Virus record (IMG/VR): IMGVR_UViG_3300032797_000032
Span: 43,097 to 107,096 of that record
Reading direction: 5' to 3' (one strand)
Source of the DNA: a virus
Length of the DNA stretch: 64,000 bases
The translations under genes and the position numbers were made by a program. The notes under the pieces are model-generated. The model did not search any database. It saw nothing but the letters and a program-made list of their open reading frames with translations, and was not told the DNA's origin. Every line of letters starts with the position of its first letter. Position 1 is the first letter of the stretch. Below, piece by piece: positions 9,962 to 47,854 of this stretch.

Positions 9962-11554
9962 ATGGGATTTTATGTTTCCCCAGGTGTATATGTTAGAGAG
10001 AAAGACTTAAGTAATCTTATCCCTAATATATCCACAACGAGTGCAGCACTAGTAGGTTATTCAACAAAGGGTAGCACTGCTCAAATGATGCTGATTACTA
10101 ACTCTCAACAGCTCATTCAGGAGTATGGATACCCTGTGCCAGGCACATTCTTGCATTATACGGGCTTGGCATATCTTGAGAACGGTAATAAGCTCTATTG
10201 CTTGAGAGTTCATAATGGAGCGTTGTTCGGAGGTCTCAAGATAATGAAGTCAGGCTCTGGTCCAAACCTGACTATGGTTACAGGTAAGGCTGCTAATACC
10301 TTCCAATTGGTATCTGGAGAGGATATCTTGTTCTATATCTTTGGTCGTGACCAAGGAACTTGGAACAACAGCACAGGTATTAGAATTACCAACGTGGATG
10401 CGGTAGCCTATACTTTCGATATTGAAGTATATGCTCTAGATGCCGATGGTAATTACCAGAAAGTTGAAACTTGGACAGTTTCCCGTAAACATCAAATAGA
10501 TGGTTATGGAAAACAGCAAAACCTTACTGATGTCATCAATGGCTACTCTGCATACATAACTGTTACAGATAACCTAATCGAAGCCGATACAGTATTACCT
10601 GAAGCCCAGCCTACTACCCTAGCTCTTGGTGGCGGGTCTAATGGTGGTGCTGTTGGGGACTCGGAACTCGTTCTGGGTTGGGATAAGTTCTCAAACCCTG
10701 ACGATGTTGATATCAGGATTCTGTTGAATGGTGGCTATACTACAGTTCCTGTTCAGCAGAAGATTAAAACAATTGCAGAGAGCCGTAAGGACTGTATTGG
10801 TATTTTGGATATGCCTTATGCTCAAGCGATTGGAACGGTTCTTGATATGACAAACTGGAGAACTATAACTCAAAACTTCAATACGAGCTATGTAGCCCTC
10901 TACTCTCCTTGGGTTAAGATGTATGACCCGTATAATGACAAGGTTTTGGATATACCGCCTTCTGGGTATATAGGCTCTCAAATAGCCTACAACGATTTCG
11001 TTGCCGAACCTTGGTATGCCCCTGCAGGTTTCAACAGAGGTATGTTGAACGTGCTAGGTATGGCGGGTAAAATCTTTACACAAGGTGAGAGAGATGTTCT
11101 GTGTGAGAAACAGATTAACCCACTCCAGACCTTTAGGGGTGAGGGTAATGTTATCTGGGGTCAAAAGACAGAACAGGTCAAGGCTTCAGCTCTTGACCGT
11201 GTAAACGTGAGAAGGCTCTTGATTGTTATTGAAAAGGCAATCTCTGCGAGTTTGAAATACTTTGTGTTTGAGCCTAACAGTGACATTACAAGATACCGCA
11301 TTACGAATATGATTGAAGAGTATTTAACCCTCTTAGCAGCACGTGGTGCGTTCCAAACTGAGGGTGGGGACAAAGGCTTTAAGGTGCTTTGCGACCGCAC
11401 AAATAATACTCCTGCGATTATAGACCGTAATGAGCTTCACGTTGATATCTTCTTGAAGCCTTCGAGAGCAGCAGAATTTATCCAGTTGCAGGCTATAATT
11501 ACCCAGACTGGTGCAAGCTTCGAAGAGTTAATTGCAAGAGGAGTAATGTTTTAA
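9962..11554 (+). CDS. Tail sheath protein
   Basis: This is the contractile sheath subunit that surrounds the tail tube and shortens on infection. The N-terminus MGFYVSPGVYVREKDLSNL is the hallmark of the sheath family. The conserved C-terminal domain includes NVRRLLIVIEKAISASLKYF at about residue 420 and, near the end, NELHVDIFLKPSRAAEFIQL. At 530 residues it is of usual length. It is followed directly by a hairpin and then the tube gene, the usual sheath-tube order. A strong AAGGAGG leader fits high expression. Confidence 0.95.
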   Translation: MGFYVSPGVYVREKDLSNLIPNISTTSAALVGYSTKGSTAQMMLITNSQQLIQEYGYPVPGTFLHYTGLAYLENGNKLYCLRVHNGALFGGLKIMKSGSGPNLTMVTGKAANTFQLVSGEDILFYIFGRDQGTWNNSTGIRITNVDAVAYTFDIEVYALDADGNYQKVETWTVSRKHQIDGYGKQQNLTDVINGYSAYITVTDNLIEADTVLPEAQPTTLALGGGSNGGAVGDSELVLGWDKFSNPDDVDIRILLNGGYTTVPVQQKIKTIAESRKDCIGILDMPYAQAIGTVLDMTNWRTITQNFNTSYVALYSPWVKMYDPYNDKVLDIPPSGYIGSQIAYNDFVAEPWYAPAGFNRGMLNVLGMAGKIFTQGERDVLCEKQINPLQTFRGEGNVIWGQKTEQVKASALDRVNVRRLLIVIEKAISASLKYFVFEPNSDITRYRITNMIEEYLTLLAARGAFQTEGGDKGFKVLCDRTNNTPAIIDRNELHVDIFLKPSRAAEFIQLQAIITQTGASFEELIARGVMF

Positions 11555-29010: not shown

Positions 29011-29053
29011 TTCGTTACAGCTTAATTAGCGTAAAAGCTGAAAGGAGTATACA
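29008..29053 (+). promoter_or_regulatory. Duplicated leader, copy 1, before the 1532-residue LamG gene
   Basis: Bases 29008-29050 are identical to 34330-34372, and one further base differs before CAATG. In both places the copy begins with the TAA of the preceding gene and ends with an AAAGGAG ribosome binding site. An AGCTT/AAGCT pair can form a small hairpin in it. The exact copy points to duplication of a gene-with-leader cassette. Confidence 0.75.
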
Positions 29054-33652: not shown

Positions 33653-34332
33653 GAGAGCTACTAACTAGATTGTTTGAGGCTAGTATGACAAATGAAAAAG
33701 AGCAACATTTCATTGACCGAACCAATTTGCACATTGGACTTGTTCAAAAGGCTATTGATAGGATTATTAACAGAAATCCTGAGTGGAGAGAGTTTAATGA
33801 GACAGAGTTGTTTAATAGAGGTAAGGTTCACGATGCGAGTAAACTAGTAGAGCCTGAAAGAACGCCTTATGTTGATATTACGTGGCGACACAAGCTAGAA
33901 AACGAAAATGGGGGTTATGACCCTATCAATAAGAAAGGCTATCAGACTCCTGGGCAGCTAGATAAGAAAGAGGAAAATGAGGCTACACTTCACCATATTA
34001 CCACAAACTCTCATCATCCTGAATTTCATCTAGTTGATAAATTAGAAGCTAATATCAATTCGCAAGATAGGGATAAATCAGACCAATGCGTTGACGCTTC
34101 GAGAATGCCAAACCTTGATTTGGCTGAAATGGTAGCCGATTGGCAGGCAATGGCAGAAGAGCTAAAGAAGAATACTGCAAGGGAATGGTATGATAAGCAA
34201 AAGGATGTTCGCTGGCACTTCTCAGAGGCTCAAGACAAACTTATAGATAGATTGTTGAAAGTATTCGAAACTAGAGAACCTTTCCATAGTCTTGACCCGC
34301 ACGATGGAATTGGGGAAGATGACGGATGGTAA
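33649..34332 (+). CDS. DUF5662-like protein with capsid-targeting-like N-terminus
   Basis: The 227-residue protein begins MRELLTRLFEASMTNE, the shared signature with an L-F-E site at residues 8-10. After that the body matches DUF5662-type proteins as I know them: HIGLVQKAIDRII, KVHDASKLVEPERTPY at about residue 60, a Trp-rich region, then LHHITTNSHHPEFHL near residue 115. The many His and Asp residues (HD-A-SK, HH, NSHHPE) suggest a metal-dependent hydrolase, but no activity is proven for the family. It overlaps the giant LamG gene by ATGA and is otherwise out of place among fibre genes. Confidence 0.6.
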   Translation: MRELLTRLFEASMTNEKEQHFIDRTNLHIGLVQKAIDRIINRNPEWREFNETELFNRGKVHDASKLVEPERTPYVDITWRHKLENENGGYDPINKKGYQTPGQLDKKEENEATLHHITTNSHHPEFHLVDKLEANINSQDRDKSDQCVDASRMPNLDLAEMVADWQAMAEELKKNTAREWYDKQKDVRWHFSEAQDKLIDRLLKVFETREPFHSLDPHDGIGEDDGW

Positions 34333-34375
34333 TTCGTTACAGCTTAATTAGCGTAAAAGCTGAAAGGAGTATTCA
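34330..34375 (+). promoter_or_regulatory. Duplicated leader, copy 2, before the 592-residue LamG gene
   Basis: This is the second copy of the 43-base identical leader described at 29008. It again starts at the stop codon of the preceding gene and carries the AAAGGAG ribosome binding site for ATG 34376. Confidence 0.75.
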
Positions 34376-36154
34376 ATGAAAACAGGTGCACTAGACAGAT
34401 ATGTAGATAGGTTAGTAAGGAATAAAGCATCAGCTCAATGCTTAGAAACTATTGAAATGCAGAGAGCTGGTAAGTTGGTAATGAAGCAATTTAATCAGGT
34501 AGGAGCAGACCCTATACTCAATGTGGATGGAACTATAGCAGTTGATGAAACTGCTCTTGATGGAAGTCCTAACTTTAGACAGCAATGTGTAATAGATAGC
34601 TACGATAAGCTACTGTTGCATTTAGATAACAATGTTACTGATAGTGCTACTGGTAAGACAGTAACTAATAATAATGTTACTTTTGATGCGAGTATAAAGA
34701 AGTTTGGAACGCACTCTGCTGTATTTAATGGAACGAATTCTTACTTGCAGCTTGCTGATAGTGATGATTGGCGATTAGGGGGAGGATGTTTTACTATAGA
34801 TTTCTGGTATAGAATACCGACTGGTTCTATTGGGAAGTATTTTGAAGTACATCAATATGTCGATGCTAATAATTATTGGGCTTGCTATATATATTTGAAT
34901 GGAGAAGTTGGTTTTAGAGTTTTTTCTGGTGGAGTTTCTATTACTTATTTTATAACATCTGCATATACAATAGCAGCTGACACTTGGTATCATTTTGCAA
35001 TTGTGAGAGATGGAAGTAATGCATATGTTTTTATAAATGGAGTATCCCAAGTTCCTACAGTTACTAATCTGGGTATTGCTCCTGATTTTGCAGCTCCATT
35101 AAGATTGGGAGAGCACGGTAGTGGCTTGGGTTATTGGTTCAATGGCTACATAGACGAACTACGCATAGTCAAAGGAGTAGCTCGTTGGACAAGCAACTTC
35201 ACTCCACCTGCTCAACCTTATCCCTGCATAGGCTCTGTAAACTCTAAAGGCGTAGTAGCTGAAAGAGTGCCTAAGAAAGTTGGAGTAGTTGTTAAGCTAG
35301 ACCAGAACGATGCAACCGTAACTGCTTCAGTTGCTAGAGATGTTGACAATTACACAAAGCTACTTATGCACGGAGAGTGCTTTAAGGATGAGACTGGAAA
35401 GGCGGTTACTTTCTATGGCAATGCTTTGATTGACAGTTCGGTGTATAAGTTTGCTGGTGGGAGTATGAAGTTTGATACTTCGAGTTCATATTTGAGTATT
35501 CCTAATAGTTCAGATTGGTATTTGGGGGTAGGAGATTGGACAATAGATTTTTGGATTAGACTAAATAGTAATCCTCCTTCTGGAAAGGTATGGGGTATAG
35601 TTCAGCAAAGGACAAGCGATAATACTATGATTCATATAGTGTATGGAGTTCCTGCTACTACTGGGGAGATTGGATTAACTATATGGAATAGTGGCGTAGC
35701 AAGCTCAAACTGGACATCTGGGGCGGGTATGGTAATCAACACTTGGTATCACGTAGCTGTTGTTAGATATGGAAGTTACTATATTACATTTATCAATGGA
35801 GTTCAGTATTATAATGCAGTCAATTCTATGGTGTGGGGAGTTTATACTGGTAACTTAACTATAGGATATGCTCGTAATGAAACTCCTGAAGATAGATATT
35901 TAGATGGGTATCTTGATGAAGTTAGAATAAGCAAAGGCATAGCTCGTTGGACAGCCAACTTCACTCCACTAACAGCAAGATACGAGCTAGGCAACTACGT
36001 ATCTGCACCGCTTACACAGATGGGTAGCACAGGCTACTATCGTTCGGATTTAATAGATGTATCTGCACAGCCTAGCGGTCAATGTGCAGGTGCAAAGGTC
36101 AATTTCTACAGTTCAGTTGCAAAGGTTCAAGGCATTGGAGTATACTACAGATAA
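34376..36154 (+). CDS. Tail fibre / adhesin with two LamG domains
   Basis: The 592-residue protein has two LamG domains beginning at about residues 77 and 325. Both contain the KFGxHSAxFNG / KFAGGSMKFD strand, the DFWxRx segment and the YLDEVRISKGIARWT end. The N-terminus TGALDRYVDRLVRNKASAQC and the end RSDLIDVSAQPSGQCAGAKV match the ends of the two other modular LamG proteins. It is the shortest member of the set, with the same attachment parts and fewer repeats. It also shares its leader with the six-domain gene. Confidence 0.8.
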   Translation: MKTGALDRYVDRLVRNKASAQCLETIEMQRAGKLVMKQFNQVGADPILNVDGTIAVDETALDGSPNFRQQCVIDSYDKLLLHLDNNVTDSATGKTVTNNNVTFDASIKKFGTHSAVFNGTNSYLQLADSDDWRLGGGCFTIDFWYRIPTGSIGKYFEVHQYVDANNYWACYIYLNGEVGFRVFSGGVSITYFITSAYTIAADTWYHFAIVRDGSNAYVFINGVSQVPTVTNLGIAPDFAAPLRLGEHGSGLGYWFNGYIDELRIVKGVARWTSNFTPPAQPYPCIGSVNSKGVVAERVPKKVGVVVKLDQNDATVTASVARDVDNYTKLLMHGECFKDETGKAVTFYGNALIDSSVYKFAGGSMKFDTSSSYLSIPNSSDWYLGVGDWTIDFWIRLNSNPPSGKVWGIVQQRTSDNTMIHIVYGVPATTGEIGLTIWNSGVASSNWTSGAGMVINTWYHVAVVRYGSYYITFINGVQYYNAVNSMVWGVYTGNLTIGYARNETPEDRYLDGYLDEVRISKGIARWTANFTPLTARYELGNYVSAPLTQMGSTGYYRSDLIDVSAQPSGQCAGAKVNFYSSVAKVQGIGVYYR

Positions 36155-36165
36155 AAACAAGGAGG
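36151..36165 (+). promoter_or_regulatory. Translation leader motif before 36171
   Basis: The leader ATAAAAACAAGGAGG is the fourth copy of the motif found before sheath, tube and chaperone genes. It overlaps the stop codon of the preceding LamG gene. Confidence 0.45.
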
Positions 36166-36170
36166 CTTAA

Positions 36171-36713
36171 ATGACACAATCAGCAATGAAACAGAGAGTT
36201 GTAAGTCCTGATATGAGTTTGGTTTCTACACTATTGCTAGCGGAGCAGTGTGACAGCCCTAACAATGTGAATTGGAAAGTTGCAGTTGTGGCACCTATTG
36301 TTATGGACGATGCGAATAATGCTATAGCGGTTAGGGGCTTCAACGATTCAACTGAACAAGGTATTGGGTTTATGCTTATGATACCTGATTGGGCAGGTTC
36401 CATTAAGTTGAATTTTACTAGTAGGGCTAAGGTTGCACCAGGAACTGCTAAAAACGTAGTGCCTAAGCTCTATTTCAGAGGCGTTCTAGACAATGGGGCT
36501 ATTGATAGCTGGTCAACAGGATATGACCTCTCCGCTTTGGTTATGCCCACTAATCTATACTTTCAAGTTGACACGCAAACTATAGCGTTTTCAACTCTAG
36601 GTATTACAAGAAATAGAATGCATCAGTTTGAACTGACCCGTAAAGTAGCAGGTGTCTCAGACAATTTACCAAGTGATTGGTATTTGCTTTCGCTTGAAGT
36701 AATGTTTATATAA
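36171..36713 (+). CDS. Beta-rich virion protein between LamG genes
   Basis: The 180-residue soluble protein is probably a jelly-roll or beta-sandwich: strands such as GIGFMLMIPDWAGSIKLNFT and a closing WYLLSLEVMFI are visible. It carries the same strong leader as major tail genes, so it is likely made in large amounts. No family is recognised. It may be a fibre collar or a tip protein partnered with the adjacent LamG proteins. Confidence 0.5.
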   Translation: MTQSAMKQRVVSPDMSLVSTLLLAEQCDSPNNVNWKVAVVAPIVMDDANNAIAVRGFNDSTEQGIGFMLMIPDWAGSIKLNFTSRAKVAPGTAKNVVPKLYFRGVLDNGAIDSWSTGYDLSALVMPTNLYFQVDTQTIAFSTLGITRNRMHQFELTRKVAGVSDNLPSDWYLLSLEVMFI

Positions 36714-36728
36714 TTAAGGGAGGTCAAA

Positions 36729-39455
36729 ATGTCCCTAAGATTTGATAGAACGTTAAGTCAATATATGCAGGTAGGAGATATAACTACCTTCAAATGGATG
36801 CACGGTGCAGAAGACCCTAATACATTCAAATGGAGTTTTAGCTTTTGGTGTAAGGTAGTAGATATGGGCGATGTTCATCCTATACTTGACACAGGTGGAT
36901 GGGTATCGTCAGGTAAAGGTGTATATGTTAGACTAAATACAAATGGGTCAATCGTTTTGGATATAGCAAGAGGTTTTGCCTTTCCTAATGAAGTATGTGA
37001 TTTTTCAAGCAATCCTGGAGACTTTCCTTTAGATGGGGCTTGGCATAATGTTGTTATAACATACGACCAAGAAATAGCTGCGAATAATGCTAAGGTTTAC
37101 GTTGATGGAACACTAGTATTTCAATATAACAAAACAGGGCTAGCTCCTTGGACAGGAGACCCTAATACAATAATGTATTTTGGGGCAAGTGTTCCAGGAA
37201 ATCAGTATGGTAATTGCTATGTAGAAGATTACAGATTCTACAAGGACATTGTCCTATCCGCTGATGAAGTTAAGGTAATTGGTAGAGATAGGGGTCACGA
37301 TGTAATTGTAGGGGAGCAGAGAAGGGGAACTCTATACGGTAATGCACAGATAGACAACTCTGTGTATAAGTTTGGGAGTGGTTCGTTTAAGAATCCTGCT
37401 TCAGGTCTTATGCATTTTACAGATTCAGATGATTGGAGATTTAGTAATGGTAATTGGACAGTTGATTTATGGGCAAGATTTAATTCGTTGCCTATTGATA
37501 CTGCTGCAATGGATTTTGTAAGCTATTATGATTATAATACTAGCAATAGATGCTGGCACGTGAGAATATATAATGATGGAGGAAATATAAAGTTAGACAC
37601 GACTTATTCAACAACAGGGGTAGACGCTAATACCAATTTTGGGTCAGGAGTAAGTTTAAGTCTCAATACTTGGTATCACTTTGCATTTGTGAGAGATGGT
37701 AATGTATTAAGATATTTTCTTAATGGAGTAGCAGTAGGAACTGCTGTTGTAACAGCTACTTTTTATAATGCACAAAGTTGCTTACTTGTCGGTGCTATGG
37801 GAAGTCCAACTGTTAATGCTTATCCTATTGATGGCTATATTGATGAGGTAAGAATATCAAAAGGCATAGCTCGTTGGACTACCAACTTCGCACCGCCTTC
37901 AGCACCTTATCAAACTGACAGCTATACCAAACTACTTTTGCACTTTGACACTACTGAAGCATTTAAGGACGATACGGGTAAGGTATTGACCAAGGTAGGT
38001 GGAGTTATTCAAGATTATACACAAGCAGTATTCTGTGGGGCTAGCTATAGGTTTGATGGAACTACAGATTATATAACTGTTCCAGATAGTGCGGATTGGT
38101 ATTTAGGAGTAGGAGATTTTACCCTAGATATGTGGATAAAGTTGAATTCTATGGTAATCAACTCTCAGGGTATTTGGCTTATAGGACAGTGGGAATCGGG
38201 TATAAAGGATTGGTGCTTTAGATTGATTAGAGATGCTACTAACGATTATCATTTATATTTCGCCAGTGAAGATGGCTTAGGAAACAACATTGAGATAATA
38301 GGAAATTTAATAAGTCCTACACCTGCACTTAATACTTGGCACCATATAGTGCTAACTCGCAGCGGAAATACCTTTCGTTTCTTCTTTGATGGCGTAGCTG
38401 CGGGAAGTGGAACTGATTCGGACGCTATGATAGACTTAGTATCAGTTCTGTATATAGGTGCGGATAATGTAGGGGCACGTTGTTTAGATGGCTGGTTGGA
38501 TGAAATCAGAATATCAAAAGGTATAGCTCGATGGACTTCAGCCTTTACAGTTCCTACTCAACCACACGTCAAAGACGAATATACGGTATTACTACTGCAC
38601 TCGTATAGGGAAGCTCTGGACGACAGCTCTACTCAAAAAGGACTTTGGGCACGCTACAAGTTTGCAGATGGCTATGACGGAGAACCTGCGGGTAAAGACG
38701 TATTGCTTCTACATTGTGATGGCTCTGACGGGGCTAATGACTTTGTAGATAGTGCTACAGGGAAGATAGTTACCGCTGTAGGTAATGCCAAAATGATTCA
38801 AGGTATTAACAAGTTTGGGTTAAGCTCTGCTAAGTTTAATGGTAGTAATGATTATTTAAGTTTAGCAGATAGTGCCGATTGGTATTTTACTGGAGACTTT
38901 ACAATTGACTTATTTGTAAGGTTTAGAGCATTTCCTGCTAACAACTATGATGCTGCGATATTTTGGCAGAAACAAGATAATAGCAATGGTCAATACTTTG
39001 CTTTGTTCAATAATGGAGGAACTCCTAGATGGGATTTTTGGCAGAATGTAGGAGGCGTAGCTGTTATATTTATGCAAATATCTGATGCATCTCTAGCTTT
39101 GAATACTTGGTATCACATAGCATTTGTAAGATACGGAAACATATACCGAGTTTTTAGAGATGGAGTAAAACTAGGGTCAGACTATACTAATGCAACTGCA
39201 TCTGTAGATTTTGTTGGGGGAATTACTATTGGTGGAGATGTTGACCTTACATATCCATTAAGCGGTTACATAGATGAGTATAGAGTTACCAAAGGAGCAG
39301 CAAGGTGGACAGGTAACTTTACTCCACCGCATCAAGCATACTTTACAGAAATAGCAGAGACATCAGGAAGAGGATTAAACACTTTTGTAAGCTCTGCGAG
39401 TGCTCCTAGGTTTAGAAGTGGAGAACTCTCAATGAAAAGAAGATATAGGAGGTAA
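36729..39455 (+). CDS. Tail fibre / adhesin with four LamG-type domains
   Basis: The 908-residue protein starts directly with a LamG-type domain (LRFDRTLSQYMQVGDITTF, then FSFWCKVVDMGDVHPILDTG). Three more domains follow, starting at about residues 199, 400 and 657. It lacks the N-terminal and C-terminal attachment modules that the three other LamG proteins share; its end is basic (RFRSGELSMKRRYRR). It may therefore attach differently or act as a distal segment. AGGGAGG precedes the ATG. Confidence 0.78.
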   Translation: MSLRFDRTLSQYMQVGDITTFKWMHGAEDPNTFKWSFSFWCKVVDMGDVHPILDTGGWVSSGKGVYVRLNTNGSIVLDIARGFAFPNEVCDFSSNPGDFPLDGAWHNVVITYDQEIAANNAKVYVDGTLVFQYNKTGLAPWTGDPNTIMYFGASVPGNQYGNCYVEDYRFYKDIVLSADEVKVIGRDRGHDVIVGEQRRGTLYGNAQIDNSVYKFGSGSFKNPASGLMHFTDSDDWRFSNGNWTVDLWARFNSLPIDTAAMDFVSYYDYNTSNRCWHVRIYNDGGNIKLDTTYSTTGVDANTNFGSGVSLSLNTWYHFAFVRDGNVLRYFLNGVAVGTAVVTATFYNAQSCLLVGAMGSPTVNAYPIDGYIDEVRISKGIARWTTNFAPPSAPYQTDSYTKLLLHFDTTEAFKDDTGKVLTKVGGVIQDYTQAVFCGASYRFDGTTDYITVPDSADWYLGVGDFTLDMWIKLNSMVINSQGIWLIGQWESGIKDWCFRLIRDATNDYHLYFASEDGLGNNIEIIGNLISPTPALNTWHHIVLTRSGNTFRFFFDGVAAGSGTDSDAMIDLVSVLYIGADNVGARCLDGWLDEIRISKGIARWTSAFTVPTQPHVKDEYTVLLLHSYREALDDSSTQKGLWARYKFADGYDGEPAGKDVLLLHCDGSDGANDFVDSATGKIVTAVGNAKMIQGINKFGLSSAKFNGSNDYLSLADSADWYFTGDFTIDLFVRFRAFPANNYDAAIFWQKQDNSNGQYFALFNNGGTPRWDFWQNVGGVAVIFMQISDASLALNTWYHIAFVRYGNIYRVFRDGVKLGSDYTNATASVDFVGGITIGGDVDLTYPLSGYIDEYRVTKGAARWTGNFTPPHQAYFTEIAETSGRGLNTFVSSASAPRFRSGELSMKRRYRR

Positions 39456-39616: not shown

Positions 39617-40357
39617 ATGGGAAGTATAAATTATGGTTCACAAACCGTGTCGGTAGCTTTTTTTGCCGCAGCTGATGCCAAAGTAGTCAACAAACGGCAT
39701 TTAAGTATTAGGGCTAGAGGTCTTTACTCTGGGGGCTACTTAACAAAGGTCAGCGATGTCTTGGTTACTCTGTCTCCTTTAGTTGTAGAGATTGGGGATG
39801 ACGACCATCAAGTTCGAGTAGCTACAGCTAATCCAATTTCAATAATAGTAGGGGTTGCAACTCCCTATATTGTTCTTCGTTGGGGTTATGCAGAGACACC
39901 TACCAACTATATGGACGTATTGGCTTTAGGAATAGGGTCTATTGTAGCAAACGACATAATTTTGGGTAAGTGCACATTTGCAGGTTCAACTCTAACAAGT
40001 TTTGACTATTTGGAAAGAGCAAACCCTGATGTATTTGACCTCTTTCTAAAAGTTGAACCTACTATTCCAGCCTCTATGTATACTCGTATTAGGGCAGGTA
40101 GAGTAAATTATGGAGTTAGAAACTATGATGTTCAAGACCAATTAAGTCCTGTATTTACTTTGCCTACTGTAGACCCTAGAATAGATGTAGTCTATGTTGA
40201 CTCTGATGGGCTAGTTAAGGTAATGAGTGGGTCTGAGGGTGCTCCTCCTTTAGCTCCTAACTACAATAACAAAAAGGTGTTAGCGGAGATAACGCTTCAG
40301 ACAGCTTCTACAGAGATTACAGCAGCTATGATAAAGGACGTTAGGAGTCCTTTCTAA
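39617..40357 (+). CDS. Tail fibre / baseplate-associated structural protein
   Basis: The 246-residue protein is beta-rich. Its last 80 residues carry DPRIDVVYVDSDGLVKVMSG, then PPLAPNYNNKKVLAEITL and a T-x-I-x-x-x-x-IKDVR end. I know this arrangement from phage structural proteins that connect fibres or decorate baseplates. AAAGGAG precedes the ATG and it is coupled by TAATG to the methyltransferase gene. The exact place in the virion is unknown. Confidence 0.55.
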   Translation: MGSINYGSQTVSVAFFAAADAKVVNKRHLSIRARGLYSGGYLTKVSDVLVTLSPLVVEIGDDDHQVRVATANPISIIVGVATPYIVLRWGYAETPTNYMDVLALGIGSIVANDIILGKCTFAGSTLTSFDYLERANPDVFDLFLKVEPTIPASMYTRIRAGRVNYGVRNYDVQDQLSPVFTLPTVDPRIDVVYVDSDGLVKVMSGSEGAPPLAPNYNNKKVLAEITLQTASTEITAAMIKDVRSPF

Positions 40358-40896
40358 TGCTTATGACTACTGACTATCCTTTATTGATTAAGCTAAAGGC
40401 AGGGCTTCCTAAGGCAGGGGTTTGGTGGCATTGGACTGCTTTGAATCAAGAGCCGATTTTCAGATATTTCTTAGAAAAGGCAAAGCCTAAGATTGCATTA
40501 GAAATAGGAACTTTTCAAGGGCTTACAGCAGCTCTCCTAGCCGAGTATGCTCAAGAGGTTTATACTATAGATGTAGTTCCATATCCAGCTCAAGAGCAAA
40601 TTTGGCAATTCTGTGGTTGTAGGGATAAGGTTAAGAACTTCGTTTGTAAGTCTACTAAGAAAAAGGCAGAGCTTATCAAAAGCATACCTTTTGACTTTGC
40701 CTATATTGATGGTTCGCATCTTATGGAGAATATTAAAGTAGATTATGACTTTACACAACATTGTAAGCATTTGTTGTTTCACGATTATTGGCAGAACTCT
40801 GAGGATTGGCAGGACGTTAAGGAATTCGTAGATGGTTTGAAATTGCCTATTGAGGTAAAAGTTCCTTTTGCCTACTATGATGGGAGAATAAAATGA
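40357..40896 (+). CDS. Class I SAM-dependent methyltransferase
   Basis: This 179-residue protein has a Rossmann-type SAM-binding motif I ALEIGTFQGLTAALLA at about residues 48-63, an acidic end of strand 2 (VYTIDVVPYP), and the IPFDFAYIDGSHLMENIKVD segment of the Methyltransf_24 type near residue 110. That type often acts on sugars or small molecules. It begins a run of coupled enzyme genes (40357, 40893, 41602) that are plausible glycan-modifying enzymes. The substrate is not visible. Confidence 0.75.
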   Translation: MLMTTDYPLLIKLKAGLPKAGVWWHWTALNQEPIFRYFLEKAKPKIALEIGTFQGLTAALLAEYAQEVYTIDVVPYPAQEQIWQFCGCRDKVKNFVCKSTKKKAELIKSIPFDFAYIDGSHLMENIKVDYDFTQHCKHLLFHDYWQNSEDWQDVKEFVDGLKLPIEVKVPFAYYDGRIK

Positions 40897-41618
40897 AATT
40901 TCATATAGTTGTTCCAACTCTCAAACGACCAGCTAAATTAGAAAGATTCTTTAACAGTTTGATAAGTCAACAACTTGACGAAACTTGGTTAGCAGAGAAT
41001 CCCACAACTGTAGGGTTACACGTATACTTTGACAACAATGATAAGGACTCTTACGATTACTTCAAAGACAAGTTTGGTAGCTACTTTCTAACAAAATACA
41101 TTTTATTAGAAGACCAAAACAGGGCATTTGGCATTTGGAACAAATATCTCAAAACAATGGATGTTGACGCTATGTTCTATGTTTGTGATGATATAGAATT
41201 TAAGCCCGATTGCCTTATTACTTGCTTAAAGGAGTTTACTACTAGGTTTCCAGATACTGATGGGTTGATGGGATTAAATCAAGAGAACATATCTTCAGAC
41301 AAAGATGGTTTTTCTAGAAATGCTATGGGTATCATAGGAAGAAAGTTTGCGGAGAGATACCCTGACCGCCAATGTTTCTGTCCTGATTATATCAGCTTTC
41401 ACGCAGATGCAGAACTTGGAAACTTTGCTAGAAGCTTAGGTAAGTTTCATTTTGCTGCAAATGCTAATATAATTCACTATCATCCTGTATATCATAAAGA
41501 CCAATTGGATGAAACTCATAGCGTAGTGCGTCAAATGAAGGATGTAGATAGGGAGATGTGGAACCTGCGTAAAAAACGCAATTTGCTATGGGGGCAGTCC
41601 TTTGATACCGTTAGATAA
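40893..41618 (+). CDS. Glycosyltransferase-like protein (GT-A fold)
   Basis: The 241-residue protein starts with FHIVVPTLKRPAKLERFFNS, the first strand and helix of family 2 type glycosyltransferases. It has a D-D-I-E motif at AMFYVCDDIEFKPDCLI (about residues 86-102), which can bind the metal and sugar nucleotide. It ends with His-rich HYHPVYHKD. It overlaps the methyltransferase by ATGA. It probably adds a sugar to a virion or host surface target. Confidence 0.65.
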   Translation: MKFHIVVPTLKRPAKLERFFNSLISQQLDETWLAENPTTVGLHVYFDNNDKDSYDYFKDKFGSYFLTKYILLEDQNRAFGIWNKYLKTMDVDAMFYVCDDIEFKPDCLITCLKEFTTRFPDTDGLMGLNQENISSDKDGFSRNAMGIIGRKFAERYPDRQCFCPDYISFHADAELGNFARSLGKFHFAANANIIHYHPVYHKDQLDETHSVVRQMKDVDREMWNLRKKRNLLWGQSFDTVR

Positions 41619-42498
41619 TCTTATGGGATACACACTACAAATGGCAAGACAAAATAAATCAACTCTTGACAATCCACCTTTGACTGAAATGGTAATGACC
41701 AAAACTAGGGAGAGGCGTTTGTCTAAGGCTGGAGACAAGTTCCCTGTCAAGTTTATGAATATCAATGCTCCACCTATAGCATACAATGTCTATACTAACT
41801 TAGAGGCTCTGTATAACAATTACTATAGAAAGATTGTGCAGGTTTTACCTAATGGAGCTTGGAAAGGTAAGAGATGCTTCATTCTAGGAGGTGGGGAGAG
41901 CCTTAAAGGATTCAACTTTAATAGATTAGATGGCGAGTTAACCATAGGTATCAATAGAGTATTTGAAGCTTACTACCCTACAGTTTTGTATTCTATGGAT
42001 ATCAGATTTTACTCTTGGGTAGTAGATTATCACTTAGACAAGTTTTCTGGAACAAAAGTAGCAGAACAATACAAAAACTATAGGGGTATAAAGGCTTTTC
42101 TTTGCCCCTTGAATCCTTTTGACTTTAAGGATGATGACGTCTACTTAGTGAGAAGAACCTTGGAAGAATGTGTGAGCTATGACTTGAATGAAGGAGTATA
42201 TGGAGGCAACAATTCGGGATTTGGTGCTCTAATGTTAGCAATTGCACTTAGAGCTAATCCGATTTATTTGTTGGGTTATGATTGTAAGATGATTAAGCAC
42301 TCACATTGGCATAATGGTTATCCTGGTCAAATAGATACTGTTCTTGCCAATAAGCTCAAATCATATAAGGAGCTGTTAGAGAAATTTGCACACTTGATAA
42401 AAGGAGATACGGATATTGTTAATCTTAACCCTGATAGTGCCGTGACTTGTTTTCCATTTGACACAATAGACAACGTGATAACAAAAAAGGAGGTTTAG
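41602..42498 (+). CDS. MptE/DUF115-like glycosyltransferase-type protein
   Basis: The start is uncertain: TTG 41602 has GGGGG seven bases upstream, while ATG 41623 has no clear ribosome binding site. The body has KRCFILGGGESLKGFNF at about residues 88-104, then LTIGINRVFEAYYPTVLYSM, and later YGGNNSGFGALMLAIALRA with PIYLLGYDCK. This is the pattern of DUF115 / 6-hydroxymethylpterin diphosphokinase MptE-like proteins and related sialyltransferase-fold enzymes that occur in phages and glycan clusters. It overlaps the previous gene by 17 bases. Confidence 0.65.
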   Translation: MIPLDNLMGYTLQMARQNKSTLDNPPLTEMVMTKTRERRLSKAGDKFPVKFMNINAPPIAYNVYTNLEALYNNYYRKIVQVLPNGAWKGKRCFILGGGESLKGFNFNRLDGELTIGINRVFEAYYPTVLYSMDIRFYSWVVDYHLDKFSGTKVAEQYKNYRGIKAFLCPLNPFDFKDDDVYLVRRTLEECVSYDLNEGVYGGNNSGFGALMLAIALRANPIYLLGYDCKMIKHSHWHNGYPGQIDTVLANKLKSYKELLEKFAHLIKGDTDIVNLNPDSAVTCFPFDTIDNVITKKEV

Positions 42499-42500
42499 CG

Positions 42501-42740
42501 ATGCCTAGTAATGCTGTTACAATGTATGACCCAGTAGTGGACGCCTTTAGAGAAATTTCAAGGACAAATGCGGAGATATTTATTGCTTCGGCAGCAGATG
42601 TTGAAGCTAAGTTGACTGCAAACCCCAGTCTTCAGATTATTTCTATGTTTGACCCTGCGATTAATGCTTACAGGGAAATAGGACGGGCTAGGGCTTTGCA
42701 GTATGTAAACTCTGCAAAGGATGTGCAAAAACTGCTATGA
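42501..42740 (+). CDS. Small protein with internal duplication
   Basis: The 79-residue product consists of two similar halves of about 34 residues: VTMYDPVVDAFREISRTNAE with a following SAADVEAKL, and ISMFDPAINAYREIGRARAL with a following SAKDVQKLL. Each half carries M-[YF]-DP-x-x-[DN]-A-[FY]-REI. The motif is likely a small beta-helix unit used twice. AAGGAGG precedes the ATG. It may be a connector or decoration in the fibre region. Confidence 0.55.
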   Translation: MPSNAVTMYDPVVDAFREISRTNAEIFIASAADVEAKLTANPSLQIISMFDPAINAYREIGRARALQYVNSAKDVQKLL

Positions 42741-42898
42741 AATTCGAAGAAGGTGTAGAAGTTAAGGTAAAGAAGTCTTTGGGAGAAGCGGGAACTTCCT
42801 TAGACAAAGTAATTGAAAACCCGCTGTTGAGGTTCTTCAGGAAACTACAAAAGGAGGATGTAAATGAAAAGCGTTTTGGAGTGTCTAAAAGAAGGTAG
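42737..42898 (+). CDS. Small basic protein (53 residues)
   Basis: It starts at an ATGA overlap with the preceding gene and runs past the start of the next gene by 35 bases in another frame. The product is charged, MKFEEGVEVKVKKSLGEAGT at the start and RFGVSKRR at the end. The AAAGGAGG of the next gene lies inside it. No family is recognised. Coupling supports it, but the long overlap leaves doubt. Confidence 0.45.
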   Translation: MKFEEGVEVKVKKSLGEAGTSLDKVIENPLLRFFRKLQKEDVNEKRFGVSKRR

Positions 42899-43373
42899 AG
42901 TAGAATGGGGTATTAGGAAGTTTGCTAGCGAAGCAGATTTCAAAGCTGGCAAGGTTTTGGAAGAGTCAAAGTTCGAAGGCAATATTATGTTGAACGAAGG
43001 TATCAATGAGCTGTGGACTTTGGTTTGTTCAGGCTCTGGAACCAAGTTCGACAATAGTAATGCTTATTTAGGTGTTGGTGATGACAGCACAGCAGAGGCA
43101 GCAACCCAAACAGGGTTGAACCCGTCAGGTGCATCTGGTTTGAATGAGCTCTATAAGGCTATGGATGGTAGTTATCCTACCTATGGAACTGCACAGAAAG
43201 CAACTTGGCGAGCAACATTTGCTGCTGGTGATGCAAACTTCGCTTGGCAGGAATTTACGGTTGCTAACGGTTCGAGCGGTGCAGCAAAGAACCTTAACCG
43301 TAAGGTATCTAACCAGGGAACAAAGACAGTAGGTCAGGTATGGGAATTAACGCTTCAGATTACCTTGAGCTAA
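42864..43373 (+). CDS. Tail-fibre-associated structural protein
   Basis: The 169-residue protein has VEWGIRKFASEADFKAG near its start, then EGNIMLNEGINELWTLVCSG, and a beta-rich body ending GQVWELTLQITLS. Proteins with the NxxLNEGI element occur in many phages as minor tail or fibre proteins. Some features parallel the 22513 protein. AAAGGAGG precedes the ATG by seven bases. A hairpin lies just after its stop. Confidence 0.6.
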   Translation: MKSVLECLKEGRVEWGIRKFASEADFKAGKVLEESKFEGNIMLNEGINELWTLVCSGSGTKFDNSNAYLGVGDDSTAEAATQTGLNPSGASGLNELYKAMDGSYPTYGTAQKATWRATFAAGDANFAWQEFTVANGSSGAAKNLNRKVSNQGTKTVGQVWELTLQITLS

Positions 43374-43430: not shown

Positions 43431-46400
43431 ATGGCAGACAAATATATACTTCTAGAAGACATAATTAGAACTCTCAATTCAGTTCTGAATGAGCAGAGCT
43501 ACAACAATAACCAATACAACGAAACTGACTCAAGCAGAGCTACGGAAACTATTTCTGCTATACAACACACTTTGAAGGTTGTATCAGATACCAATTCCTC
43601 TGTTTCGGAGACTTTGACTTTAGATATTGTAATTCAAGTTCTCCAATCAATGACTGCGTCCGAGCTTGTAAGCCTTAAAGCCTACCTATCATTAGCAGAT
43701 TCTGGGGCTATGACAGAACTGCTTAGTATCTATGCTAGGTTAGCAGTATCGGATACAGGGGCAGCTGTAGAGTTGATATACTTGTTATTTGCTAAGCTCT
43801 CTATAGGAGATACAGGCTCTGTATCAGAGATTATAAGCCTTGCTGCGGGGTCTAGCTTAACTGACACAGGCTCTATATCCGAATTGATTTCAATTTATGC
43901 AAAGTTGAGTATTCTAGATACTAGCCTAGCCTCTGACTTTGTTCAAATAGTTGCTAAGTTGACTACATCAGATACAGGTTCAGGCTCTGAAATTATTTCT
44001 CAATTGAATGCTAATGTTTCGCAAGCTGACTATGCTTTTAGTGCTGATACTATATCCTTGTTAGTAAGATTAGCTGTATCTGACTCTATAGCTTCAACAG
44101 ATATTCAATACATTGTAGCGTTTCTAAGCCTAGCAGATACAGGAACGATAAGTGAGACCCTTAGCACATTAGTCAACTTCTATGTAGCCGATACGGGTGC
44201 ATTAACAGAGTTGATAAGTATTCTTAGGGGTATACCTATTTCAGATACAGGGGCTTTCAGCGAGTTGATTTCAATTCTAGCAAGGGTCTATGAATACGAT
44301 TCGGCAGTTGCGGCAGATTTAGCACAAGTATTATCCATTAAATTGTCTTTATCCGATACAGGTATAGGCGTTGACGAGATTATCAGAAACAAGGGTTTTA
44401 CTCTGCAAGATTCCGTTTCAGCTATAGATGTAATCAGTCTTTTCATTCAATTGACAGTTTCTGATTCAACTTTAGCAAATGATGCAATTTCAATTGCGGC
44501 AAGATTTACTATTTTGGATAGTTCAATAGCTACTGAATTGATTTCAATATTTAGTAAATTAGCAACTATACAAGATACAAGTTATGCTTCAGATGTAATC
44601 TCTATACTTGTTAAATTTGCGATTTCTGATAGTATTGGAAACACGGAGCTCCTTTCTATAGTGGGCAGACTAGCTATTTTGGACTCAACCTTGGGCTCTG
44701 ATACACTAGCTTTGATTAAAGCCTTCCTGACGTTGGGCGACACCGCATCTGCCCAAGAAACTATATCTCTGCTAGCCAATCTCCAAATAATAGCGGATAC
44801 AAGCCTTTCAAGTGATGTAATCTCCATTCTAGCCAAAATTACTCAATCTGATAGCGGTCTATCCCTAGAAGAGATACTAACTATCAAAGCTAACATAAAC
44901 TTGGTGCAATTGGGAGTAGCCTATGACTTTGTCAATATCGTGACGGGCTTCTTACTAGGAGATGTCTCTACTGGAGTAGATTTTGTTAGCTTAGTAGGGT
45001 CTGGGATTATTCAAGATTCTGGGGCTATGGTAGAGGTCATAAGTGTATTTGCTAAGATAACGCAAGTTGATATAGGGCTATCAGCAGAGTTCTTAGAAAT
45101 AGTAGCTAAACTTGATTTGTCAGATGGTGCTACAGCAACAGAGCTTGTTTCTTATATACGTAAGCTTGACGTTTTGGATACTTCAACTGCGGTAGAATTA
45201 CTTGAACTTCTTGTTAAATTGACTGCAGAAGATTACGGGTCAGCTCTTGACGTAGCTACTCTAATTGCTAGATTGACTATTCTAGAAACTATGTCAGGGA
45301 TTGATATTCTAGAAGCTTCAATAGGGGCAGTAATACCTGATACCTCAATAGGCTCCGACATTATTACTTTATTAGCAAAGCTCAATTTGACGGATTCTGT
45401 TGTGGCAGTAGAGTTTTTGACTTTAGTAGCCCGATTAAGTATAGATGATTCAGGTATAGCCTCTGAATTTATTACCCTGTTGGTAAAACTATCAGAAACT
45501 GATACGGCTTTGGCTTCAGAATTTCTTCACTCTGCAATTGCTGCTTCTGCTCAAGAGAGTGTATCTTCGTTAGAAGAGCTTTCGATTACTAACAGATTGT
45601 CTTTATACGACTTAGTAGCGGGATTAGATGAAATTTCTAGAAATAAGTATTTAACATTAGTAGAGAGCCTAACAGGAACGGATGCCGAAGCAATTATTAA
45701 AGCTTCTCTGGATATTAGCGATTCTGCAAGCTCTGTAGATTTAGCCAATGTGCTAGCACGGCTTGCTTTAGCAGATATTGGAGCTTTCTCTGAAGTCATT
45801 AGCTTACTTAACCGCCTTAACATTACGGATACTACTTTAGCAGTTGAGCTAGTTAGCTTGATTAACAGATTTGAGTTAAGTGATGCGGCAACTGCCTTTG
45901 AATTGGTTTCCAAAGTCTTCATAAAGGTAGTAGATACTGAAGCAGGGTCTGCTAGCGATGTAGTAGATATTCTAGCTAAGGTCTCCGTATTAGACTCCGA
46001 TACTCTAAGTGATTTTATTTCTATAGTATCTAGACTTACAGTTTTGGATTTAGGCTTAGGTAATACTTTAGTCTCAATTCTAAGTATGTTATCTGTCTCC
46101 GATTCTGCAAATGGGGATGAGTTGATAGATATTCTAAGGCGTATATTCGCTTTAGATACAGGTGTAGGTTTAGAAGTTTTGGACATATTCACAAAGTTGA
46201 ATGTCTCGGACTCTGTAGTTGTAAATGAGCTTGTTCAAGTCTTTGCTACGGTCTTTGAATCGGATACCAATATTGGATTTAGCGAATTAGTAGCCCCGAA
46301 ACCCTTAATAGATATACTAGACAATGGTGTAACAGTAGAGCAGATAGTTAATATTCTACAGATTTCAAGGTCATTATTCTTATCTTCTGTAATGTATAAT

Positions 46401-46466
46401 AGAATGGATTTGTCTAGCTCTATACCTAGTAATACAATTACTTTGAACAGCTTCATAGAGATGTAA
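43431..46466 (+). CDS. Giant repeat protein of about fifty 18-residue units
   Basis: I choose ATG 43431. A TTG at 43389 lies two bases after AGGAGG and would put the hairpin at 43391 into coding sequence. After 50 non-repeated residues the protein is an array of about 50 units, most of exactly 18 residues, with consensus D-[ST]-G-x-x-[ST]-[ED]-L-I-S-I-L-A-K-L-x-[IVL]-S. A short non-repeated end (RMDLSSSIPSNTITLNSFIE) follows. The strict period suggests a solenoid fibre. No enzyme motif is seen. The place in the fibre region and the size (1011 residues) suggest an elongated virion appendage. Confidence 0.7.
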   Translation: MADKYILLEDIIRTLNSVLNEQSYNNNQYNETDSSRATETISAIQHTLKVVSDTNSSVSETLTLDIVIQVLQSMTASELVSLKAYLSLADSGAMTELLSIYARLAVSDTGAAVELIYLLFAKLSIGDTGSVSEIISLAAGSSLTDTGSISELISIYAKLSILDTSLASDFVQIVAKLTTSDTGSGSEIISQLNANVSQADYAFSADTISLLVRLAVSDSIASTDIQYIVAFLSLADTGTISETLSTLVNFYVADTGALTELISILRGIPISDTGAFSELISILARVYEYDSAVAADLAQVLSIKLSLSDTGIGVDEIIRNKGFTLQDSVSAIDVISLFIQLTVSDSTLANDAISIAARFTILDSSIATELISIFSKLATIQDTSYASDVISILVKFAISDSIGNTELLSIVGRLAILDSTLGSDTLALIKAFLTLGDTASAQETISLLANLQIIADTSLSSDVISILAKITQSDSGLSLEEILTIKANINLVQLGVAYDFVNIVTGFLLGDVSTGVDFVSLVGSGIIQDSGAMVEVISVFAKITQVDIGLSAEFLEIVAKLDLSDGATATELVSYIRKLDVLDTSTAVELLELLVKLTAEDYGSALDVATLIARLTILETMSGIDILEASIGAVIPDTSIGSDIITLLAKLNLTDSVVAVEFLTLVARLSIDDSGIASEFITLLVKLSETDTALASEFLHSAIAASAQESVSSLEELSITNRLSLYDLVAGLDEISRNKYLTLVESLTGTDAEAIIKASLDISDSASSVDLANVLARLALADIGAFSEVISLLNRLNITDTTLAVELVSLINRFELSDAATAFELVSKVFIKVVDTEAGSASDVVDILAKVSVLDSDTLSDFISIVSRLTVLDLGLGNTLVSILSMLSVSDSANGDELIDILRRIFALDTGVGLEVLDIFTKLNVSDSVVVNELVQVFATVFESDTNIGFSELVAPKPLIDILDNGVTVEQIVNILQISRSLFLSSVMYNRMDLSSSIPSNTITLNSFIEM
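43587..46375 (+). repeat. Degenerate 54-bp tandem repeat array
   Basis: The coding array has about 50 units of 54 bases, some 57. Units are diverged at DNA level but keep the Asp-Ser/Thr start, the acidic residue six or seven positions later and the Leu/Ile ladder. Examples of encoded units are DTGSISELISIYAKLSIL, DTGAFSELISILARVYEY and DSGIASEFITLLVKLSET. The divergence shows an old, selected array, not a recent expansion. Confidence 0.85.
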
Positions 46467-46482
46467 AAATGGAGGATAGCCA

Positions 46483-46767
46483 ATGGCAGAAAAACATTAC
46501 GTTGGTGAAATCAATACCGAGATAAGAGTAGACTGCGGTATAGATGTCTCCCTAGCCTCCACCAGAAAAATCTTCTTTAAGAAACCGAATGGAATTGTAT
46601 TGGAGAAAACGCCTACTGTATATAACAATAGGTATATGCGTTTCTTTACGGTTTTAGGAGATTTGGATATTTCTGGTGAGTATGAGCTCCAAACCTACAT
46701 AGTTCTAAATGGTTGGACAGGTAGAGGGCAGACAGCTAGATTCGTTGTTTATGATACATTTGATTAA
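46483..46767 (+). CDS. Small beta protein, paralogue of the 7055 product
   Basis: The 94-residue protein begins MAEKHYVGEINTEIRVDCGI and ends with GWTGRGQTARFVVYDTFD. Both ends match the outer parts of the 179-residue protein at 7055, which has about 80 extra residues in the middle. It is probably a compact beta-sandwich virion accessory protein. AATGGAGG-type ribosome binding sequence precedes the ATG. It follows the repeat protein and precedes a glycosyltransferase gene. Confidence 0.55.
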   Translation: MAEKHYVGEINTEIRVDCGIDVSLASTRKIFFKKPNGIVLEKTPTVYNNRYMRFFTVLGDLDISGEYELQTYIVLNGWTGRGQTARFVVYDTFD

Positions 46768-47322
46768 ATGAAATTCATAACCATTTCATATTGCACTAAA
46801 GGGGCATATGAGGCTCTTTCGCTACGGTTGAAAGAAAGTCTCGAAAAGTTGAATATTGAGCACGAACTCAAAGTTATTGATACTTTAGGGTCTTGGCAAA
46901 AGAACTGTATGTATAAAGCAATCTTCATTAAAGAAATGATAAGTAAATATAGCAAACCTATATTGTTTGTAGATGCAGATGCTATTTTCTATAGATATCC
47001 TTCTTTAATAGAAACGCTTGATGTTGATTTTGCAGTTCATTACTTTAAGGATAGACAGCTAGCATCAGGAACATTATACTTTAACAATAGTAGTCCAGCT
47101 CTGGATTTGTTAGAGGCTTGGATATCCTATAATAATGAACATCCTAACGAATGGGACCAATCAAACCTACAAAATGTTGTGGAAACTCTAGGTTGGAAGT
47201 ATAAGTTGAAAATGAGCTATTTGCCTCCTGAATACTGTAAGATTTTTGACCTAACAAAAGATGTCCAGAATCCGATAATTGAACATTATCAAGCTTCAAG
47301 GAGATTGAAAAATGCTAGTTGA
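46768..47322 (+). CDS. Nucleotide-diphospho-sugar transferase-like protein
   Basis: The 184-residue protein has KPILFVDADAIFYRYPSLIE at about residues 66-85, with the DxD-type metal/sugar-nucleotide motif. SGTLYFNNSSPALDLLEAW near 112 and EWDQSNLQNVVETLGW near 135 follow, as in the nucleotide-diphospho-sugar transferase family. It should transfer a sugar to a protein or glycan. It directly follows the previous stop codon and overlaps the methyltransferase by 11 bases. It is shorter than most members, so a minimal catalytic domain is likely. Confidence 0.65.
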   Translation: MKFITISYCTKGAYEALSLRLKESLEKLNIEHELKVIDTLGSWQKNCMYKAIFIKEMISKYSKPILFVDADAIFYRYPSLIETLDVDFAVHYFKDRQLASGTLYFNNSSPALDLLEAWISYNNEHPNEWDQSNLQNVVETLGWKYKLKMSYLPPEYCKIFDLTKDVQNPIIEHYQASRRLKNAS

Positions 47323-47854
47323 ACAAGTTGAGAAAGAGAAATACAAGTTTCAATGGGAACATAATTATCTACCTTCAAAATGTGCCCTACCCTTAGTTGA
47401 CTATGTAAAGGATACTGCACAGGCTCAACAAACTCTTCTTGATATAGGTTGCGGTAATGGAATTACTGTTGCCAAGATAAGAGAGTGTGGGTATCGTTGT
47501 GACGGAATAGATATAACGCTTGCAGGTATTCAAGGGGTTTTTAATCCTCCTTTGATTGAGGCAACTTTGTGGAAAATGCCTTTTATGGAAAATGCCTACG
47601 ATTATACATTCTCAACAGATGTGCTAGAGCATATACCATTAGAAATGGTTGAAGATTCTATTAAAGAAATTATTAGAATTACAAAGGTTAAGACATTTCA
47701 TTGTATCGCTTCATTCTCGCATAAACGATATGATGTAGAGCTACATCCAACACTTCAACCTATAGATTGGTGGTATCGAATCTTTGAGAAGTATAATACA
47801 AAAGGTCTTTCAGTTAAAATCCTAGATAGGTGGGATTTCTTGAAATTGAAATAG
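47312..47854 (+). CDS. Class I SAM-dependent methyltransferase (type 11-like)
   Basis: The 180-residue protein has motif I LLDIGCGNGITVAKIRE at about residues 45-61, the acidic end of strand 2 in CDGIDIT, and the STDVLEHIPLEMVEDSIKEI segment (about 105-124) typical of Methyltransf_11. It is coupled to the glycosyltransferase before it. The pair may build or cap a glycan on virion proteins or on the cell surface. The substrate is not visible. Confidence 0.75.
   Translation: MLVEQVEKEKYKFQWEHNYLPSKCALPLVDYVKDTAQAQQTLLDIGCGNGITVAKIRECGYRCDGIDITLAGIQGVFNPPLIEATLWKMPFMENAYDYTFSTDVLEHIPLEMVEDSIKEIIRITKVKTFHCIASFSHKRYDVELHPTLQPIDWWYRIFEKYNTKGLSVKILDRWDFLKLK

What the first reader, a model, noticed from the sequence alone, without database searches (positions are those of the whole stretch)
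43431..46466. 1011-residue protein of about fifty 18-residue repeats
Counting by eye gives about 50 units, nearly all of exactly 18 residues, starting with Asp-Ser/Thr and holding an acidic residue six to seven positions later and a Leu/Ile ladder. The precise period with diverged sequence indicates a selected solenoid. If each unit is one coil of about 4.8 A, the rod would be roughly 24 nm long. Its function is not known to me.
Basis: partly seen in the sequence, partly recalled or inferred. Interest (0 to 1): 0.68.

Follow-up and report, generated by a model that had tools for sequence, protein, structure and literature searches.

The report
Repeat-built stalk protein of phage tail
The gene encodes a 1011-residue protein made almost wholly of about 51 diverged copies of an 18-residue unit, belonging to a phage-specific repeat family that sits beside tail genes and is fused to known tail-fibre and lectin-like domains, so it is most likely a length-variable stalk of the virus's host-attachment apparatus; its fold is not settled.

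Summary
In detail: ORF 43431-46466 (1011 aa) has a sharp 18-residue period with 51-53 units, 39 of 50 spacings exactly 18; shuffles do not reproduce it. Units share no DNA-level repeat and average 24% identity. Acidic residues at unit positions 1 (49/52) and 7 (50/52) are the most conserved. The gene lies in the tail/adhesin module of a contractile-tail phage (107-kb IMG/VR record). A DNA pattern plus an HMM from this protein found the repeat in 61 of 120 IMG/VR loci but in 1 of 115 bacterial/archaeal genome loci matched by the same pattern, and in annotated Rhodococcus and Mycobacterium phage tail genes. The upstream gene family (phrog_23653-like) accompanies it in 34 of 61 loci (0 of 28 control loci). 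Relatives fuse the repeats to LamG, Gly-rich minor-tail and tail-fibre domains. A close relative (sheath 65% identical) keeps the gene order but has ~24 units. Best explanation: a virion tail stalk. AlphaFold gives one long strand per unit in two alignments (pLDDT 54-60, low); Foldseek lists mostly parallel beta-solenoids, none significant; hydrophobic moments in this subgroup favour a helix. So 'solenoid' is plausible but unproven. No Pfam model covers the repeat.

The parts
43431..46466 (+). 1011-aa repeat protein (whole gene, with stop)
   Evidence: Translation; period statistics
43431..43526 (+). Non-repeat N-terminal segment, aa 1-32, Asn-rich (possible cap)
   Evidence: Unit parsing; poor unit scores
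43527..46373 (+). Array of about 51-52 units of 18 aa, aa 33-981; pattern D1-[ST]2-G/A3-x-[AG]5-x-[DE]7-L-I-S-[IL]-L-A-[KR]14-L-S/T-[ILV]17-x
46374..46463 (+). C-terminal tail, aa 982-1011 (LFLSSVMYNRMDLSSSIPSNTITLNSFIEM), loosely similar to the tail of the close relative in L193
   Evidence: read by eye
42864..43373 (+). Upstream partner gene, 169 aa, phrog_23653 family (E 1e-51); relatives annotated 'minor tail protein' in Rhodococcus phages; co-occurs with the repeat in many phages
46483..46767 (+). Downstream 94-aa gene, strong GGAGG site; same position and 36% identity in the close relative L193; beta-sandwich-like by eye, no Pfam or PHROG match
42501..42740 (+). 79-aa gene with internal duplication (YDPxxxAxREI), upstream of the partner gene; a similar small gene lies in L194
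26282..39455 (+). Context: LamG/concanavalin-like proteins at 26282-28840, 29054-33652, 34376-36154 and 36729-39455, resembling baseplate/virion structural families
9962..11554 (+). Context: tail sheath; with the baseplate wedge gene at 20811-22502 it shows a contractile tail

Best explanation
The protein is a phage tail (baseplate/fibre) structural protein whose 18-residue units stack into an elongated stalk that spaces or carries the host-binding parts of the tail. Each unit most likely contributes one beta-rich coil (a strand from Glu/Asp7 to Asp1 of the next unit, bent near the small residue at 13, and a five-residue turn [ST]-G-x-[AG]-x), stacked in parallel so that unit number sets length: about 51 units x 0.48 nm, or 25 nm. 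The two near-invariant carboxylates per unit would line up as acidic ladders beside the turn, stabilised by turn backbone groups or bound cations. In relatives the stalk is fused to adhesin domains in one chain; here the lectin-like (LamG) domains are on separate upstream proteins. Shown: the repeat, its spread among phages, gene neighbourhood, domain fusions, change of unit number. Inferred: virion location, stalk function, fold, cation binding.
For: Tail context: sheath, baseplate wedge and LamG virion-like proteins upstream in the same direction. The window-built HMM finds the repeat in 61 of 120 IMG/VR pattern loci but 1 of 115 genome-collection pattern loci, a Tsukamurella contig, and in Rhodococcus phages REQ1 and Madraxi; tblastn from relatives L036 and L113 reaches Mycobacterium phage minor tail proteins (Omnicron 28, FF47_25, prophi91-4 73, IdentityCrisis 21) lying after the other tail genes, of which the two scanned match phrog_416 'minor tail protein'. 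Partner family in 34/61 repeat loci, always same strand and mostly upstream, against 8/59 pattern loci without the repeat (Fisher 1e-6) and 0/28 sheath loci. Fusions: LamG (L123, L062), Gly-rich domain (phrog_416 proteins), DUF2793 and tail-fibre families (L195), phrog_2804 virion structural (L006, L062). Close relative G007: sheath 65%, partner 70% identical, repeat protein with ~24 units and no fixed unit-to-unit register. Beta fold: two AF2 runs; Thr-rich relatives with beta-type moments and Pro at position 16 in 11% of units.
Against: No proteomics or imaging could be done or found, so virion presence is untested. AF2 confidence is low (pLDDT 54-60, pTM 0.45-0.51) and no Foldseek hit is significant. 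The hydrophobic moment of this protein's units is larger at 100 degrees (0.30) than at 170 (0.17), as for an amphipathic helix. The window protein has no recognised adhesin domain of its own and no PHROG match. Not every locus with the partner gene shows a detectable repeat. The 28 control loci have shorter reach around a different gene, so they are a rough baseline.
Confidence: 0.62

Rival explanations
1. Same tail stalk, but the units form an alpha/beta solenoid: an amphipathic helix (positions ~4-15) and a short strand (15-18) per 18-residue coil, as in short leucine-rich-repeat-like solenoids.
For: Hydrophobic positions 8, 9, 11, 12, 15 lie on one helical face; moment at 100 degrees exceeds 170 degrees in the window protein and in L026, L003, L028, L113; Glu7 and Lys/Arg14 are placed as at helix ends. 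Weak Pfam hits of L026, L028 and L029 are to helical repeats, below cut-off.
Against: AF2 predicted no helix in either segment even though most rows of the first alignment were of this subgroup. Mean Chou-Fasman propensity over 8-17 is higher for strand than helix (1.19 vs 1.07). Thr-rich family members cannot easily be helical there.
Confidence: 0.18
2. Same stalk, but the chains form an antiparallel beta-meander sheet or an intertwined homotrimer (triple beta-helix or beta-spiral shaft) rather than a single-chain solenoid.
For: DSSP shows 13-residue strands with only 5-residue loops, which would suit hairpins; phage shafts are commonly trimers (established knowledge; e.g. the T4 gp5 spike, abstract of PMC4576200).
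Against: Foldseek neighbours are parallel solenoids rather than antiparallel sheets, though none is significant; only monomers could be predicted; model coordinates could not be inspected.
Confidence: 0.15
3. A cytoplasmic or assembly factor (tape-measure-like ruler, chaperone or scaffold) that is encoded among tail genes but is not in the mature virion.
For: No adhesin domain in this chain; located between accessory glycosyl- and methyltransferase genes.
Against: Relatives are annotated minor tail proteins and are fused to surface-type domains. Fusion to LamG, DUF2793 and Gly-rich domains would be unusual for an assembly factor.
Confidence: 0.08
4. A low-complexity chain without stable structure, its period being a by-product of repeat expansion.
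For: Low pLDDT; unit number differs between relatives.
Against: Pro is 5 of 1011 residues and I+L+V+F is 37%, unlike disordered chains. No DNA tandem repeat: the period persists at 24% identity, so expansion is not recent. Strict 18-residue frame across many phages.
Confidence: 0.06

Closest known systems
Mycobacterium phage minor tail protein family phrog_416 (Omnicron gp28, FF47_25)
   Same: N-terminal run of D-x-G-x-G-x-D units about 16-19 aa apart, in the tail gene cluster; reached by tblastn from close relatives of the window repeat
   Different: Only about 7-8 units, followed by a Gly-rich domain; window protein has ~51 units, no Gly-rich domain and no PHROG match
Rhodococcus phage REQ1 Orf64 / Madraxi gp8
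   Same: Repeats D-T-G-x-G-x-[DE] about every 18 aa, and the same phrog_23653 partner gene a few genes upstream
   Different: Thr/Pro-rich units, N-terminal Gly-rich or LamG-like domain, non-contractile phage; unit pattern favours strand
PHROG 1696 ('major tail protein', 2079 positions) and PHROG 23524
   Same: C-terminal part of 1696 matches the repeats of L026, L036, L011 and L028
   Different: The window protein itself does not match it
RTX beta-roll (GGxGxDxUx, 18 residues per coil)
   Same: 18-residue coil length; turn [ST]-G-x-[GA]-x-[DE]-x-[IVL] recalls G-G-x-G-x-D-x-U in Gly-rich relatives (by eye, from general knowledge)
   Different: Only one such turn per 18 residues, Glu more often than Asp at position 7 in the window protein, Gly not conserved there; no Pfam match
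Functional amyloids CsgA/FapC
   Same: Stacked in-register repeat; among the top (non-significant) fold neighbours
   Different: No sequence match, different repeat motif, E-value not significant

Membership tests
Phage D[ST]GxGx[DE] 18-aa repeat family (defined here) | Tandem units of 18 (+0-1) residues with D1, [ST]2, [DE]7 and alternating hydrophobics | tested here: met
Phage D[ST]GxGx[DE] 18-aa repeat family (defined here) | phrog_23653-like partner gene nearby on the same strand (frequent, not universal) | tested here: met
   42864-43373, phrog_23653 E 1e-51; 34/61 repeat loci
phrog_416 minor tail protein | Match to the PHROG profile | tested here: not met
   P0001: 0 PHROG families
phrog_416 minor tail protein | C-terminal Gly-rich domain | tested here: not met
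   No such domain in P0001
RTX (HemolysinCabind) beta-roll | GGxGxDxUx nonapeptides, two per coil / Pfam match | tested here: not met
   No Pfam match at E 0.1; Gly/Ala at position 5 in 32/52, position 3 in 28/52
RTX (HemolysinCabind) beta-roll | Calcium-dependent folding | not testable with these tools
   Needs purified protein
Beta-solenoid proteins | Stack of beta coils, one repeat per coil | tested here: inconclusive
   AF2 all-beta, pLDDT 54-60; Foldseek hits mostly solenoids but none E<0.001; helix-type moment
Phage tail fibre/virion protein | Present in the virion | not testable with these tools
   No proteomics at hand
Phage tail fibre/virion protein | Encoded in the tail module and related to annotated tail proteins | tested here: met
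Curli/Fap amyloid repeats | Sequence repeat match (Pfam) | tested here: not met
   No match

The most novel reading that the evidence does not exclude
A phage-specific, uncatalogued 18-residue repeat that folds as a cation-stabilised (acidic-ladder) beta-roll and is traded between contractile and non-contractile tailed phages, often together with the same partner gene, as an adjustable-length stalk for host-binding domains.
Probability: 0.2. Interest if true: 0.62.

Novelty: new variant of a known kind. Interest (0 to 1): 0.46.

Why it matters
Attachment parts of environmental phages are mostly unannotated. A repeat with no Pfam model, found in many phages with a recurrent partner gene (phrog_23653-like) and joined to several adhesin types, gives a way to recognise tail stalks by sequence alone. 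Because length seems to be set by unit number, it makes the relation between stalk length and host surface testable, and it raises a clear structural question (two chemically different flavours of one 18-residue unit).

Tried and rejected
P0001 as a single query found no relatives in IMG/VR and alignment A1 was too diverged for that tool; a composed consensus and a three-unit DNA pattern worked. The PDB match 9e5c_0q (LIM zinc-binding domain protein; E 2.8e-18 with A3) was rejected: a Glu/Ala/Thr-rich low-complexity stretch with large bias terms, best single domain only i-E 2.5e-4. The weak Pfam hit T3SS_CopN_3rd was below cut-off. The giant SP-15 protein SP15_064 (tblastn E 3e-12 from L036) and LIS04_86 were not accepted as members: their unit scores (88 and 60) do not exceed shuffled-protein levels. 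Nearly all of the 115 genome-collection pattern hits fail the repeat HMM; those inspected include collagen-like GPTGDTG arrays. Glycosylation of the repeated Ser/Thr by the flanking transferases was considered: no such genes were noticed in the fetched surroundings of the relatives L193 and L194 (read by eye), so it stays a side idea. The SP-15 genome paper (PMC5977210) had no passage on these proteins; the Rhodococcus phage paper (PMC13313380) places REQ1, Jflix2 and Shagrat in Cluster CF but the passages found do not discuss the repeat; paper searches found nothing on an 18-residue phage repeat.

Full report
Observation. ORF 43431-46466 encodes 1011 aa. Identity at lag 18 is 0.234, about twice or more that of neighbouring lags, and the substitution-matrix score at lag 18 (+0.64) is far above anything in 200 shuffles (best -0.24). 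Profile parsing gives 51-53 units; shuffled versions score at most 118 against 835. Spacing is 18 in 39 of 50 gaps and 19 in nine, the extra residue lying just before the Asp. Acidic residues at 1 (49/52) and 7 (50/52) are the best conserved positions, more so than Gly at 3 or 5. Tandem Repeats Finder sees no DNA repeat and mean pairwise unit identity is 24%, with only a slight excess between neighbours (0.263 vs 0.240, permutation p 0.03). So the protein pattern is kept while the sequence has diverged.

Genome context. The window is part of a 107-kb IMG/VR record. Genes for a tail sheath (9962-11554), a baseplate wedge protein (20811-22502) and several LamG proteins (26282-39455) lie upstream in the same direction. 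Methyl- and glycosyltransferase-like genes flank the repeat gene at 40357-42498 and near 46768. Upstream is a 169-aa phrog_23653 gene, downstream a 94-aa gene without family match.

Family. tblastn of P0001 found only Rhodococcus phage REQ1; the partner gene found Bacillus SP-15, Listeria LIS04 and Rhodococcus phages REQ1, Madraxi, Shagrat and Jflix2, in the last three of which it is annotated minor tail protein. REQ1, Madraxi, Shagrat and Jflix2 carry D[ST]GxGx[DE]-type or related repeats in genes close downstream; the window HMM accepts those of REQ1 and Madraxi. An IMG/VR relative, L003, is 612 aa with a 24-unit run behind an N-terminal domain, next to genes that look like head-tail connectors and a tape measure (by eye). 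The repeat is thus essentially a phage feature, within the limits of two truncated scans.

Partner gene. An HMM of the partner family hits 34 of the 61 repeat loci, always on the same strand and upstream in 30 by the script's tally (a few of these overlap or abut), but 8 of 59 pattern loci without the repeat (Fisher 1.2e-6) and none of 28 loci fetched by the tail sheath (Fisher 4.6e-8). Some loci are near duplicates, and contig ends limit the reach, so the numbers are approximate. The partner also occurs without a detectable repeat: most of the 17 loci fetched with it show none within the held flanks.

Domain fusions and relatives. Repeats are fused to LamG domains (L123, L062), Gly-rich domains in Mycobacterium phage minor tail proteins (phrog_416), DUF2793 and tail-fibre families (L195), and phrog_2804 virion structural proteins (L006, L062). 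A close relative of this phage (G007; sheath 65%, partner 70% identical) has the same order partner - repeat - small downstream gene (36% identical), but its repeat protein (590-aa ORF) has about 24 units and aligns to the window protein about equally well at several offsets. Unit number therefore changes while the frame stays.

Fold. Confidence is low (mean pLDDT 53.8 and 60.4). Foldseek finds nothing with E<0.001; the PDB lists are mostly parallel beta-solenoids and functional amyloids (SufB/SufD, FapC, CsgA, CAP1, ice-binding proteins, pectate lyases) with TM-scores mostly below 0.3. Against this, the hydrophobic moment of unit positions 7-18 is larger at a helical angle for the window protein and its nearest relatives (0.30-0.45 vs 0.14-0.26), while Thr-rich relatives favour a strand; simple propensities over positions 8-17 favour strand in all. 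I put a beta stack at roughly three in four, with a parallel single-chain solenoid the largest share. Model coordinates could not be read, so parallel versus antiparallel is inferred from fold neighbours and loop length only.

Mechanism. The most economical reading is a stalk of the tail's attachment apparatus whose length is set by unit number; about 51 units at 0.48 nm give roughly 25 nm. Acidic ladders next to the turn suggest, but do not show, cation binding. Here the lectin-like domains are on separate proteins, so the stalk would have to be joined to them or to the baseplate through its ends or the partner gene product; this is inference.

Novelty. Phage shafts made of short repeats are a known kind. 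This repeat has no Pfam model, is only partly captured by PHROGs (416, 1696, 23524) and, as far as the searched literature shows, has not been described. I file it as a new variant of a known kind, of moderate interest.

Noticed in passing
window 40357-42498 and 46768-47854: Methyltransferase, GT2, sialyltransferase/MptE-like and nucleotide-sugar transferase genes flank the repeat gene inside the tail module; might modify the Ser/Thr-rich repeat or other virion proteins.
   Followed up: partly
window 26282-39455: Several very large LamG (concanavalin-like) proteins, one of 1532 aa with six matched stretches, resembling baseplate/virion structural families.
   Followed up: no
window 42501-42740: 79-aa protein with an internal duplication (YDPxxxAxREI); a similar small gene lies upstream of the partner gene in L194.
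   Followed up: partly
L004/L005 and L129/L130 (Bacillus phage SP-15, Listeria phage LIS04): Both carry the partner gene after baseplate genes and, a few genes on, a giant 'pectate lyase' protein (4402 and 3568 aa) with many Asp-rich pseudo-repeats; membership in the 18-aa family not established.
   Followed up: partly
L036 4472-7501 versus L122, L118, L026: One repeat family shows two flavours: Leu/Ile-rich with helix-type periodicity and Thr-rich with strand-type periodicity, at the same 18-residue length.
   Followed up: partly
L122, L029, L113, L096, L028 C-termini: Many relatives end in short arrays of a second repeat (NRTYVVPAQ, or KTSPYSRK-like), perhaps a shared terminal motif.
   Followed up: no
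L221, L241 (Marasmitruncus, Clostridium sp. E02): Collagen-like GPTGDTG arrays behind an N-terminal domain matched the DNA pattern through their own periodicity.
   Followed up: no
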